Position numbers and translations under genes: made by a program
Origin: a virus
Direction: 5' to 3' (one strand)
DNA: 31,465 nt
IMG/VR virus record: IMGVR_UViG_3300029955_000098
Span: 1 to 31,465 of that record
Shown here: piece after piece, positions 26,367 to 29,877 of the stretch
Position numbering within the stretch: the first letter of the stretch is position 1
Layout of the letters: every line of letters begins with the position of its first letter
Notes under the pieces: model-generated
Told to the model about the DNA's origin: nothing
Seen by the model: only the letters and a program-made list of their open reading frames with translations
Database searches by the model: none

Positions 26367-26981
26367 TTACTTAGATTCTGCCATCAACCGAAAGCTAAGT
26401 CCAAGCTTTTTGCTCTGTTTTCCCGATTTGAGAAGGCCAGATATAGTCACCCGGCTGACGCCCAGCATCTCGGCCGCAGCGTTAACGGACTCGTACACAG
26501 TGCCCGTTTCAACGGCTATAACGGCTTTGTACTTCCAGGGCTGGGCAACTCCGGTCATGGTCTCGCTGATGCGCTGGCGTCGCTCCTCTGAGACGGGGCG
26601 GCCTTTAGGGGCACCGTTCATCCGGTTTTTGATAGGGCGGCCTTTGAGGGAGGCCGCTATTTTCTCGCGCGTTTCGGCATGGCACATCTTGTTTTTACCG
26701 CCAAGCTCAAGGTTGTACCCGTTTGGGGCGACCGTATTAAGGGCCTTAATATAGGTCTCTTCTTTGATATTCAGTTCGTCCAACGTAGTTGCTGAGTCAA
26801 TCTGCTCAACGTGGAAGTTTTCAATGCCATGCTTGCGCATCGCACTATATAATGCCGTCTGTCGTGACCCATCTTGTCTAGCGTAGCGCTTATGGTCTGC
26901 CCATCGGTCTCCTAGCTTGCCCGTAGTTTGACCGATGTAAAGCTTACCGTTGACCGTATTAGAGATTTTGTAGATGACCAT
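26367..26981 (-). CDS. GIY-YIG homing endonuclease with NUMOD repeats
   Basis: This 204-residue protein has the GIY-YIG nuclease domain at residues 1-95: VIYKISNTVNGKLYIGQT, the conserved Arg in DRWADHKRYAR, and the catalytic Glu in NIKEETYIKALN followed by NGYNLELGG. The C-terminal half holds NUMOD3-type segments (HAETREKIAASLKGRP and SEERRQRISETMTG) and a NUMOD1/HTH-like segment (YESVNAAAEMLGVSRVTISG). It is the Seg-type arrangement of T4-like free-standing endonucleases. ATG 26981 follows AGAGAGGG. It stands between the coat gene terminator/promoter and the PQ-loop gene and does not lie in an intron. It probably targets a related phage sequence. Confidence 0.92.
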   Translation of the reverse strand: MVIYKISNTVNGKLYIGQTTGKLGDRWADHKRYARQDGSRQTALYSAMRKHGIENFHVEQIDSATTLDELNIKEETYIKALNTVAPNGYNLELGGKNKMCHAETREKIAASLKGRPIKNRMNGAPKGRPVSEERRQRISETMTGVAQPWKYKAVIAVETGTVYESVNAAAEMLGVSRVTISGLLKSGKQSKKLGLSFRLMAESK

Positions 26982-27106: not shown

Positions 27107-28222
27107 CTAAGCACTCAAACTTACGACACAATTCCACCCAGGGGCCGAACAAATGAGGTTGCCGTAGTAAGCAATCCGAATCTCCAACGCGTCAGCAGTA
27201 CCGACACGCAGGCCCTCCAATCCCTCCATGCCATAAGTGAGAATATGAGGCACTTTGCCCAAGCTTCTCAGTTTCCAGGTGTTCATCGTCAACAGGTAGG
27301 CCGTTTGCGGGGGGCAGCTACGGTCGGCAAGCACGGTCACGCGGCCATAAGCCGATTGGAACGTGATACCTTCGAAAGCCACTTCCACTTCGTCATGGTT
27401 GACTTGAACGTATACCACTTTAGCGCCAAGGGCGTTAACGAGTGCAGCGTACGAAGCGAAGTCCATGATGCAAAGGTCGGGTTTGCCACCTTCACGGTTC
27501 AAGAACGCCAGGGCGTTCGTCATGCCTTCTTCGATCGTGTAGGCTTGCGCGTTGAAACGGCAGCCAGCAAGACGAGTCGGGTCAGTCGAACGGTTAACTC
27601 CCCAGAAGCTGTCCGTCGGAGGAGGCGTAGCGGTCGGGATCCACGCACCGAGGCCAGCAAGACACTCGCTCGAGCCGGTGTTGACAGTACCAGCGACGAT
27701 ATCGCCAGAGATGCCAAGGCCGTTTCCAGCAGTCGTCCACGAAGCATCAATAGCCGACGCTTGGATCGTGATGACGCCGGTAGCGCGGTTGACAGACGTA
27801 ACGAGGCCCGTCGTTGCCGAAAGAGCCGAAATGACGCCAGCCGCATACGAGTAGTTTACCAAAAGCATGTTGACTTCGAATTGCACGACTTGTTGGATAT
27901 TCGCCAACGTGATCGTGTAAACCGAGCCAGCAGCCGTAGCCGAACCGATGAAACCGCGCGTGCCAGAACCATCCGAGAACAGTTCGAACGCGATGTTGTT
28001 CGTCAAGTTACGGAAACCACCGTCCATTTGGAGTTTTGCAGCGTCCACAAACGCGCCCGCGTTCGTTTTCGTCTGTTCCATAAGGAGGTTGGTGATCGTA
28101 ACGAGTTGGTAGTCTTCGATCACATAGACGAAGAAGCTAGCCAATTGGCTCGCAGTTTGTTGGTTCTGAGCGTTCGCGAAACTATGCGAACGGCCCTGTG
28201 GCGTTCCAAACTCGATCGGTAC
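27107..28222 (-). CDS. Major capsid protein, exon 3
   Basis: Exon 3 encodes the last 371 residues of the coat protein. It starts VPIEFGTPQGRSHSFANAQN, which is preceded by intron, and includes TKTNAGAFVDAAKLQMDGGF, DSFWGVNRSTDPTRLAGCRF, EEGMTNALAFLNREGGKPDL and MNTWKLRSLGKVPHILTYGM. These are typical of HK97-like major capsid proteins of podoviruses and siphoviruses. The frame could be read from TTG 28225, but this has no Shine-Dalgarno site and would lack the N-terminal 46 residues that every relative carries. Joining exon 1 (29877-29801) and exon 2 (29052-28992) to 28222 gives one 417-residue protein. The stop is followed by a strong terminator. The identity of the protein is firm; the precise junction is inferred. 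Confidence 0.93.
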   Translation of the reverse strand, partial: VPIEFGTPQGRSHSFANAQNQQTASQLASFFVYVIEDYQLVTITNLLMEQTKTNAGAFVDAAKLQMDGGFRNLTNNIAFELFSDGSGTRGFIGSATAAGSVYTITLANIQQVVQFEVNMLLVNYSYAAGVISALSATTGLVTSVNRATGVITIQASAIDASWTTAGNGLGISGDIVAGTVNTGSSECLAGLGAWIPTATPPPTDSFWGVNRSTDPTRLAGCRFNAQAYTIEEGMTNALAFLNREGGKPDLCIMDFASYAALVNALGAKVVYVQVNHDEVEVAFEGITFQSAYGRVTVLADRSCPPQTAYLLTMNTWKLRSLGKVPHILTYGMEGLEGLRVGTADALEIRIAYYGNLICSAPGWNCVVSLSA

Positions 28223-28991
28223 CAAATGGGCTTATTAGCCCTGTTATCGGCCGGCTTTTTATCCGACCTTCTGATACTTATTAGTGTACTTTATTAGGTT
28301 TAGCATTGTTTGAACATTTTCTTCAAGCAAGCCAAAAGCCCGGTTACACTTAATGCAGAGAACGCCTCTAGGGTTTTTAGTACCGTGGTCGTGATCCAAA
28401 GCCATAGCAACTTCTTTTCCACGCCACAAAACCTTTCGATTTTGTCCACAACCTGCGCAAACACCGCCTTGTTCTTTTAACTTGGCGTCGAAATAGGCGG
28501 AGCCTACTCCATATGCTTGCTTCAGCTTTGTATCCCTTATTTTTTCGGGATTCCGGTTACGGTAGCTAGTTACCCTAGCTTTTACGACTTCTTTATTTTC
28601 GTCGTAATATTGTTTGCGTTTCTTTTTGACACACTCTTTACATCTGCTTTCTTTGGCAGATGTATAAAATTTGTCTAAAGATTCAAACTTTCCGCAACCC
28701 GTGCATTTTTTCGTATCAGTTCGGCGTACATCATCAAGAATTTTCATCTTGTTCTCCACTCTTGGCACTATTTTATTCTAGCATTTTTAGGGGCTAGTTT
28801 CAAGTACTACGCTCTACGGTGGCTCAAAATCGTTACTGTTTGAGCTTACCTCGGGATTGGCATTTCAGCTTCCCCCGATACTGGAGAATTTTACATTCCC
28901 ATACCTCTAGGAATGTATTTTCCCGCGAATCCGTCCAAATATCAACTAGTTAGTTGTTTTGAGCGGGAAAATAAAGCCCCGACGGTTAGGA
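28223..28991 (-). ncRNA. Group I intron 2 of the coat gene
   Basis: This 769-nt insert separates coat exons 2 and 3. P1 is clear: exon AAAGCCCU pairs over 8 bp with GGGGCUUU at intron positions 12-19, placing a U-G wobble at the 5' splice site. P2 is a perfect 10-bp stem (AUUUUCCCGC / GCGGGAAAAU). P5 (CGGG/CCCG), P6 (GCUCAAA/UUUGAGC), P7 (GUACU/AGUGC) and P8 (CUAGC/GCUAG) follow in the right order. A GGGCU-AAUA-AGCCC hairpin lies just before the 3' end, which is a G followed by exon GTACCG. The core GUAUCGGGGGAAGCUGA...AAUGCCAAU matches intron 1. The endonuclease gene lies between core and 3' splice site. Helices were paired by eye. Confidence 0.85.
28259..28747 (-). CDS. Endonuclease VII-like homing endonuclease in intron 2
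   Basis: The 162-residue protein starts at ATG 28747 after GGAGAA; a GTG at 28768 is in frame but lies in the intron P7 strand. Residues about 10-45 hold a Zn-finger-like module with two CxxC pairs (CTGCGKFESLDKFY and SRCKECVKKKRKQY) followed by a basic arm. The C-terminal half is endonuclease VII-like: VCAGCGQN, MALDHDHGTKNPRGVLCIKC then NRAFGLLEENVQ, with the zinc Cys pairs, the catalytic Asp-His and the Asn after the second CxxC as in T4 gp49. Its place inside a group I intron indicates a homing role: cutting intronless coat genes at the exon junction. The stop is 36 bases before the 3' splice site. Confidence 0.92.
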   Translation of the reverse strand: MKILDDVRRTDTKKCTGCGKFESLDKFYTSAKESRCKECVKKKRKQYYDENKEVVKARVTSYRNRNPEKIRDTKLKQAYGVGSAYFDAKLKEQGGVCAGCGQNRKVLWRGKEVAMALDHDHGTKNPRGVLCIKCNRAFGLLEENVQTMLNLIKYTNKYQKVG

Positions 28992-29052
28992 AGGGCTTTC
29001 GTTCTTGGGCAAAAGGGCCAAGAACGGGTTTTCTTTATAGACAAGGTCTTTC
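28992..29052 (-). CDS. Major capsid protein, exon 2 (61 nt)
   Basis: Exon 2 supplies one base that completes AT|G, then KDLVYKENPFLALLPKNESP, ending in a full codon. Coat relatives have the same KDLVY-NPFLAL-PK stretch, so this element is diagnostic. Without it no ORF shows it, because it runs into TAA six bases into intron 2. The upstream end follows the intron 1 terminal G and the downstream end is the U paired with G in intron 2 P1. Residues 27-46 of the joined protein come from it. Confidence 0.88.
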
Positions 29053-29800
29053 CAGATATGTTATCGCGCCCGGCTCTTTATCCAGCGCTTCTAGCATTTG
29101 TTAAATTTGCGACGATTTTCTGCTCTGGGCAATATCTGCAAATTCCAAGGAACATGCAGGCCACAAACATTATCTCCGCAAAGTGGAACTATGTGATCAA
29201 CTTCGTGAGGTCCTAAACTTTTTGAAAGCTCAGAAGCCTTTAAGAAGATATCTTGCATCTGCCTATAGTGTTCAAAAGTAAGCCATTTAGGAGTTGCGTT
29301 TAGCTTTTGGGCTTGGTATTTATGAGTTCTGGCTAATACTTTAGCCAAATTCTCTTTAACATACCTTCTTTGCCCGGCCCTAATCTGGTCCCGATTTTTT
29401 TCTCGGTAACGAGCTTGGGTCGCTTTACGCTGCTCTGAAGACTTTTGTCCTCTAGGAGCATCCTGATTCGGATAAAGATAGAGCCTTGCTCTTTTCTTTG
29501 CGCATTCCTTGCACTCCGAACTTTTGCCAGATTTGTAATAATCTGTTTCTGGCTTGCTTATTTTGCACATCGTGCAGAGCTTCATAATATCCTTTATGCT
29601 AGCTCAGACTATCTTATCACCCTCTTGGGGTGCCGTCCACTCGTGGTATCATTTTAGTCCGTATCTACGGGATCAGATACTAGTCGTTACAAGGGCTTAA
29701 AATCTTTAGCTTTAAGCTTCTCTCGGTATTGGCATCTCAGCTTTCACCGATATTGGACAGTTTTCATCCACCAGTTGCCTGATGGCGACACAATTAATTT
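29053..29800 (-). ncRNA. Group I intron 1 of the coat gene
   Basis: This 748-nt insert separates coat exons 1 and 2. P1 pairs exon ACAU plus the first two intron A residues with UUGUGU, giving a 6-bp helix with a U-G pair at the 5' splice site and a 5-base loop. The core has CCAAUAUCGGUGAAAGCUGA and GCCAAUACCGAG (P4-P5 region). Two GACUA copies (29685-29681, 29659-29655) can pair with UAGUC in the typical AAGAUAGUC element at 29615-29607 (P7). P8 is CACCC/GGGUG, and GUAUCT/AGAUAC is a P7.1-like hairpin. It ends ATATCTG, with exon GAAAGAC next. The HNH gene lies between core and 3' splice site. Subgroup not assigned; helices paired by eye. Confidence 0.88.
29091..29585 (-). CDS. HNH homing endonuclease in intron 1
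   Basis: This 164-residue protein starts at ATG 29585 after AAAGGA. The N-terminus is a two-CxxC module (KLCTMCKISKPETDYYKSGK, SECKECAKKRARLY) followed by a long basic arm. The C-terminus is a standard HNH: HEVDHIVPLCGDNVCGLHVP then WNLQILPRAENRRK, with the catalytic His, the metal-binding Asn and His. It lies wholly within group I intron 1, starting 22 bases after the core P7 element and ending 38 bases before the 3' splice site. It is expected to cut intronless alleles of the coat gene near the exon 1-2 junction. The N-terminal module resembles the intron 2 enzyme, although the nuclease domains differ. Confidence 0.93.
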   Translation of the reverse strand: MKLCTMCKISKPETDYYKSGKSSECKECAKKRARLYLYPNQDAPRGQKSSEQRKATQARYREKNRDQIRAGQRRYVKENLAKVLARTHKYQAQKLNATPKWLTFEHYRQMQDIFLKASELSKSLGPHEVDHIVPLCGDNVCGLHVPWNLQILPRAENRRKFNKC

Positions 29801-29877
29801 ATGTATTCCTTGTCGTCCGTGTACAATTCTTTAAGTGCCGCAATCTGGTTGGCACTAGTAGCGTAAATAGCAGCCAT
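29801..29877 (-). CDS. Major capsid protein, exon 1
   Basis: ATG 29877 has AGGAG six bases upstream, in the gap after the scaffold gene. It encodes MAAIYATSANQIAALKELYT then DDKEY and two bases (AT) of the next codon, after which the frame meets TAA in the intron. The sequence is the expected N-arm of HK97-like coat proteins. Exon 1 ends at the U that pairs with G in intron P1. The exon is only 77 nt, so automated gene calls would miss it. Confidence 0.9.

What the first reader, a model, noticed from the sequence alone, without database searches (positions are those of the whole stretch)
27107..29877. Major capsid gene interrupted by two group I introns, each with its own homing endonuclease
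Three separate coding pieces (29877-29801, 29052-28992, 28222-27107) join to one 417-residue coat protein. Both 5' sites have a U paired with G in a P1 helix; both 3' ends are G; the phases (2 then 0) join exactly. The coat gene is a highly expressed, indispensable head gene, and two introns within 140 coding bases are unusual. Predicted junctions give DDKEY-M-KDLVY and NESP-VPIEF. One caution is that the second junction appears a few residues shorter than some relatives near the loop after PK.
Basis: partly seen in the sequence, partly recalled or inferred. Interest (0 to 1): 0.92.

Follow-up and report, generated by a model that had tools for sequence, protein, structure and literature searches.

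The report
Coreless satellite introns in capsid gene

Summary
The split capsid gene is real, but the second junction is misread. Uninterrupted relatives carry nine more residues there (DGFAGKYIP), encoded inside "intron 2" as a 27-nt micro-exon. So there are three inserts: a 748-nt group I intron, a 56-nt mini-insert (28991-28936) and a 686-nt group IA intron (28908-28223). Both long introns encode EndoVII-like nucleases; the 686-nt class has a strongly covarying core.

The mini-insert has no core. Spliced alignment found 33 distinct ones (30-59 nt, about ten sites) in relatives. Each fits U|...G| boundaries with a guide strand complementary to both flanking exons (P1+P10). Most pair a further 7-12 nt with exon abutting P1 of one specific downstream full intron, in L065 1.1 kb away. 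They occur in 27 of 36 intron-bearing genes and 0 of 78 intron-free ones (p=8e-19). Four found after the rules were fixed obeyed them.

Best explanation: "satellite" introns without a catalytic core, excised by the tethered helper intron's ribozyme. T4-type ribosome bypassing fails (0/29 matched codons). No RNA data were available; excision and helper catalysis are inferred. Closest precedents: tiny fungal rRNA introns (PaSSU) and engineered spliceozymes.

The parts
29801..29877 (-). capsid exon 1 (77 nt, phase 2)
   Evidence: homology to intron-free relatives; empty site in strain L006
29053..29800 (-). group I intron 1, 748 nt, has P2, no satellite assigned to it
   Evidence: Rfam Intron_gpI 29810-29586, E 6.7e-7, below gathering score; layout
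29091..29585 (-). EndoVII-like nuclease ORF in intron 1
   Evidence: phrog_1035 E 1.6e-20
28992..29052 (-). capsid exon 2; its end AAAGCCCU (28999-28992) is the P1 exon strand of the satellite
28936..28991 (-). 56-nt satellite intron, no catalytic core, in-frame TAA at its second codon
   Evidence: spliced alignment, guide test
28973..28985 (-). satellite guide CCGUC-G-GGGCUUU: P10 strand (28985-28981), G28980 facing U28992, P1 strand (28979-28973)
   Evidence: no shuffle of 2000 as good
28963..28972 (-). satellite tether strand AUUUUCCCGC, pairs with 28926-28917
28909..28935 (-). micro-exon encoding DGFAGKYIP; contains the P10 target (28935-28931), tether target GCGGGAAAAU (28926-28917) and P1 strand of intron 2 (28916-28909)
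   Evidence: conserved in intron-free relatives
28223..28908 (-). group IA intron 2 (helper), 686 nt, long P1, no P2
   Evidence: covarying core over 18 sequences; layout
28259..28768 (-). EndoVII-like HNH nuclease ORF in intron 2; its start overlaps P8 and the 3' strand of P7
   Evidence: Pfam PF02945 E 2e-13
27107..28222 (-). capsid exon 3
   Evidence: Pfam SU10_MCP, PHROG major head protein; Foldseek of a low-confidence relative model best hits SU10 capsid

Best explanation
The capsid pre-mRNA holds two self-splicing group I introns plus a 56-nt satellite intron with no catalytic core. The satellite supplies only the substrate side of group I splicing: a U.G pair at its 5' end, one guide strand that pairs with the end of the upstream exon (P1) and the start of the downstream exon (P10), and a terminal G. 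A further strand directly after the guide pairs with exon sequence abutting P1 of the downstream full intron. This places the satellite's P1 beside the helper intron's P1, so that the helper's ribozyme can use it: a free G attacks after U28992, then the freed exon attacks after G28936, joining exon 2 to the micro-exon; the helper then excises itself. The early stop codon probably keeps ribosomes off unspliced RNA. Shown by comparison: the inserts, their boundaries to within synonymous shifts, the three pairings and their covariation, the link to one helper. Inferred: removal at the RNA level, the helper core as catalyst, the order of events, the role of the stop codon.
For: 29 distinct coreless inserts of 30-59 nt by spliced alignment. 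For all 29 a register U|...G| with G facing the U exists within alignment uncertainty; 15 need no shift. P10 of 5-8 bp in 28 of 29; most guides beat all of 2000 shuffles. Tether to the exon abutting P1 of a specific full intron: 25 of 29 reach p<=0.03 against at least one intron, including L065 at 1114 nt distance and L062 with two satellites matched to two introns. At one helper site 110 of 113 exon differences are accompanied by a guide change. Present in 27 of 36 intron-bearing and 0 of 78 intron-free genes, p=8e-19. Four satellites found after the rules were set obey them. Early in-frame stop in 25 of 29 against 20% in shuffles. The helper class has a complete covarying core. Strain L006 keeps satellite and intron 2 without intron 1. 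Engineered group I ribozymes can remove 64-100-nt coreless introns in E. coli (PMC4094466).
Against: No RNA evidence of any splicing. L046 aa28 has no in-register helper; L042, L117, L123 and L073 aa45 have weak or shifted tethers. The four bulged guides at codon 30 are not significant in the ungapped test. In 14 of 29 the U and G boundary needed a shift of 1-2 nt from the aligner's choice. No rule was found that matches satellite and helper 3' ends. Shuffle p-values ignore shared ancestry. Tiny fungal introns are reported to splice without a helper.
Confidence: 0.72

Rival explanations
1. The mini-inserts are autonomous minimal group I-like introns, as reported for the 63-75-nt PaSSU introns of fungal rRNA, and splice without a helper core.
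For: PaSSU introns also have P1, P10 and a pairing between intron middle and 3' exon, lack most of the core, and are reported to splice in vitro.
Against: Inserts as short as 30 nt leave about 15 nt outside the guide, too little for a P7 of the kind claimed for PaSSU. None occurs in a gene without a full intron, and the third pairing goes to the flank of a full intron's P1, not simply to the nearest exon.
Confidence: 0.08
2. A different group I core, not the tethered one (another intron of the same phage, or an excised intron acting in trans), removes the satellite; the tether serves another purpose, such as ordering the two splicing events or shielding the helper's 5' site.
For: Some genes hold several full introns; tether weak or shifted in L042, L117, L123, L073 aa45 and absent in L046 aa28.
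Against: One-to-one tether in register in most cases; L006 has only intron 2 in this gene.
Confidence: 0.1
3. The inserts stay in the mRNA and are skipped by ribosomes, like the T4 gene 60 coding gap or mitochondrial byps.
For: Similar size, hairpin and stop codon right after the upstream junction.
Against: No landing triplet equals or is synonymous with the take-off codon in 29 of 29; seven lie inside a codon. Does not explain U.G, terminal G, P10, or the tether to a full intron.
Confidence: 0.05
4. One reading: a single intron 28991-28223 is removed and the micro-exon is skipped.
For: U.G at 28992 and G at 28223 could be joined in principle.
Against: It deletes nine residues conserved in relatives. 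With satellites at codons 22 to 50 before the same helper site, skipping would delete variable, conserved stretches. The micro-exon has its own P1 with intron 2.
Confidence: 0.03

Closest known systems
Small degenerate group I introns of Phialophora and lichen rRNA (PaSSU type; PMC3160393)
   Same: 56-81 nt, most of the core absent, P1 with G.U at the 5' site, P10, and a pairing of the intron with the 3' exon; reported to splice in vitro
   Different: Those lie in fungal rRNA, end in U, are said to keep a P7, and no helper intron is described. Here: phage protein gene, terminal G, as short as 30 nt, about ten sites, linked to one specific full intron
Spliceozymes and trans excision-splicing ribozymes (engineered; PMC4094466)
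   Same: A group I core removes a coreless intron of similar size from an mRNA
   Different: Engineered; the guide sits on the ribozyme. Here the guide sits on the removed segment, and the ribozyme is another intron of the same transcript
Group I introns with homing endonucleases in phage genes (for example Bastillevirinae, PMC11878797; Jug phages, PMC12363816)
   Same: The two long introns here
   Different: No satellite introns are mentioned in the passages read
T4 gene 60 bypass and mitochondrial byps (own knowledge)
   Same: Short coding gaps with stop codon and hairpin
   Different: No matched take-off and landing codons here; group I splice-site features instead
Group II-derived degenerate introns served by RNA in trans (Euglena group III introns, spliceosome; own knowledge)
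   Same: Reduced introns that rely on RNA supplied from elsewhere
   Different: Group II chemistry, different lineage

Membership tests
Group I intron (intron 1, 29800-29053) | P3-P9 catalytic core | tested here: met
   Rfam Intron_gpI full-length model match, E 6.7e-7, though below gathering score
Group I intron (intron 2, 28908-28223) | P3-P8 core with P7 | tested here: met
   98.2% of cells paired, 23 pairs changed on both sides, 18 sequences; P7 itself invariant in this set
Group I intron (intron 2, 28908-28223) | U.G at 5' site in P1, terminal G | tested here: met
Group I intron (mini-insert 28991-28936) | U.G at 5' site in P1, P10, terminal G | tested here: met
Group I intron (mini-insert 28991-28936) | P3-P8 catalytic core | tested here: not met
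   30-59 nt in all; guide and tether use about half the length
Group I intron (all three inserts) | guanosine-initiated self-splicing | not testable with these tools
   no RNA data
PaSSU-type small group I intron | P1, P10 and intron-exon pairing without most of the core | tested here: met
   compared
PaSSU-type small group I intron | terminal U and a P7 | tested here: not met
   all fitted with terminal G; 30-nt members have no room for P7
Programmed ribosome bypass (T4 gene 60, byps) | matched take-off and landing codons | tested here: not met
   0 of 29 identical or synonymous

The most novel reading that the evidence does not exclude
Natural satellite introns: introns that keep only the group I guide and splice-site nucleotides and depend on the ribozyme of one specific full intron, recruited by a tether helix abutting the helper's P1. 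It would be a natural group I ribozyme that splices an intron other than itself, a group I parallel to the step from self-splicing introns to introns served by a shared splicing RNA.
Probability: 0.72. Interest if true: 0.96.

Novelty: categorically new. Interest (0 to 1): 0.92.

Why it matters
If true, a natural group I ribozyme removes an intron other than itself. That is the kind of step proposed for the origin of the spliceosome and, for group I RNA, so far known to me only from engineered ribozymes. The set offers natural test pairs with built-in controls: covarying tethers, satellites at about ten sites, helpers with and without satellites. It also suggests an addiction: once a satellite sits in an essential gene, the helper cannot be lost. 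Practically, 30-59-nt introns break gene models of capsid proteins and were not recognised by ORF listing or Rfam here.

Tried and rejected
Rfam at gathering score gave no hits in the window or in 16 related loci, so the core was shown by own alignment. Relatives in the phages collection and in genome contigs: none. Search of viral contigs for a sequence identical to the predicted spliced junction: none. The same intron class is common in other phage genes; a signature scan upstream of those without P2 gave convincing satellites only in two further apparent capsid genes, L201 and L298. An HMM search with both intron classes found hardly any intron outside the capsid gene in the flanks of the first loci. 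A link between satellite and helper 3' ends (P9.0) was looked at by eye; no rule seen. L046 aa28 satellite: no in-register helper, including the intron at codon 14. Ribosome bypass rejected. The structure model of a relative's capsid protein is poor (pLDDT 54) and is only weak support. Apparent inserts in L048 aa209, L071 and L074 were judged in-frame loops or misalignments.

Full report
THE OBSERVATION. The window is a whole IMG/VR record. The 3' piece matches SU10_MCP and a PHROG major head protein, and both inserts hold EndoVII-type nuclease ORFs. A search of viral contigs with the joined protein gave 80 relatives, many uninterrupted, one (L002) 90% identical.

JUNCTION 2 IS WRONG. The missing DGFAGKYIP is encoded inside the 'second intron'. 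A spliced alignment of the window to a profile of intron-free proteins gives three inserts: 29800-29053 (748 nt), 28991-28936 (56 nt) and 28908-28223 (686 nt) (the third moved by one base so that it ends in G). Insert 1 is supported by Rfam (35.4 bits, E 6.7e-7, below the gathering score) and by a 98.7-99.4% identical strain, L006, that lacks exactly this insert and keeps the other two.

THE LONG INTRON 2 IS A GROUP IA RIBOZYME. Rfam did not recognise it. I aligned 18 introns of the class and drew P3, P4, P5, P6, P7, P7.1, P7.2 and P8 by hand. 98.2% of cells pair, against 77.8% in shuffles and at most 41.7% when slid; 23 pairs change on both sides. P7.1/P7.2 is what places it in subgroup IA (established knowledge). 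The nuclease ORF overlaps P8 and the 3' strand of P7.

THE 56-NT INSERT IS ONE OF A FAMILY. Spliced alignment of the loci found 29 distinct inserts of 30-59 nt in the capsid gene, at about ten sites (codons 22 to 51, and 412). I call them satellites. Fitted to group I rules with boundaries allowed to move by up to 3 nt, all 29 accept a register in which the upstream exon ends in U, the insert ends in G, and the U faces a G lying between two paired stretches of the insert. 15 of them need no shift at all. 28 have 5-8 bp between the guide and the start of the 3' exon (P10). P1 is 6-8 bp in 19, 4 bp in one, and interrupted by a bulge or mismatch in nine. Most guides are better than all of 2000 shuffles; the four bulged guides at codon 30 are not significant in that ungapped test. 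Different sites have different guides, and exon changes at one site are matched in the guide (AAAGAG with CUCUUU, AAAGAA with UUCUUU, AAGGA with UCCUU). An in-frame stop lies within the first three codons in 25 of 29, against 20% of shuffled inserts. The size leaves no room for a group I core.

THE SATELLITE IS TIED TO ONE FULL INTRON. The strand directly 3' of the guide pairs with the exon just upstream of P1 of a downstream full intron. The target usually covers about -17 to -8, flush with the P1 strand, whether the distance is 21, 73 or 1114 nt. In L062 two satellites match two different introns one to one. In L065 the satellite passes over the nearer intron and matches one 1.1 kb away. By duplex energy 25 of 29 reach p<=0.03 against at least one intron of their gene; one of these (L046 aa28) is out of register, and L042, L117, L123 and L073 aa45 do not reach it. 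For helpers at codon 54, 110 of 113 exon differences between loci come with a change in the tether strand, and all 19 non-consensus exon letters stay paired. In the window the minimum-energy fold has satellite P1, tether helix and helper P1 as three abutting helices (z -2.96).

ASSOCIATION AND INDEPENDENT TEST. Of 114 distinct capsid genes, 27 have both satellite and full intron, 9 only full introns, 78 neither, none a satellite alone (p=8e-19). The full introns fall into two layouts: short P1 plus P2 (26-29 nt between guide and P3) and long P1 without P2 (2-6 nt). By my tally of that listing, 31 of 42 of the second kind have an assigned satellite, and none of 14 of the first kind in the -17/-8 register; L073 aa53 has one at -13 to -4, next to its shorter P1. 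A later scan brought four further satellites. All fit the rules fixed before (tether p=0.001, 0.005, 0.001, 0.02), though P10 is only 3 bp in L388. At codon 50/51 some phages carry a satellite and others a full intron at the same site.

MECHANISM. The satellite is a group I substrate without an enzyme. The tether puts its P1 beside the helper's P1 and J1/2, so a swap of the two P1 helices in the docking site of one core is the simplest reading. This is inferred from base pairing; no RNA was seen. The stop codon may shield unspliced RNA from ribosomes (inference). The helper class exists without satellites in many other phage genes, so dependence seems to run one way.

RIVALS. Ribosome bypass fails on codon matching, 0 of 29. 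Autonomous tiny introns of the PaSSU type are the nearest natural precedent; they share P1, P10 and an intron-exon pairing but end in U, are said to keep a P7, and no helper is described. Skipping the micro-exon would remove conserved residues.

NOVELTY. The two long introns are new members of a known kind. For the satellite-helper pair I found no natural precedent in ten literature searches, which cover open-licence papers only. The engineered analogue is the spliceozyme.

Noticed in passing
window 26367-26981 (-): A GIY-YIG homing endonuclease gene lies directly downstream of the capsid gene, apparently free-standing.
   Followed up: no
L195-L313: The group IA intron class with its nuclease start inside the core (AUGUACGCC overlapping the 3' strand of P7) is widespread in other phages and genes; Rfam missed the members tested.
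   Followed up: partly
L031 5001-6699: A complete capsid gene followed by a second copy of its last 29 codons about 320 nt downstream, 97% identical: perhaps a remnant of intron or gene rearrangement.
   Followed up: no
capsid genes of L073, L078, L055, L065, L062, L389: Up to five inserts in a single capsid gene, including 190-230-nt group I introns without nuclease ORF.
   Followed up: partly
L049/L386/L389 against L043/L044/L117/L390, codon 50/51: Same insertion site holds a satellite in some phages and a full group I intron in others, hinting that satellites may arise from full introns or share target preference.
   Followed up: partly
all satellites: How a new satellite arises is unexplained: guide and tether must match two separate places in the gene at once.
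   Followed up: no
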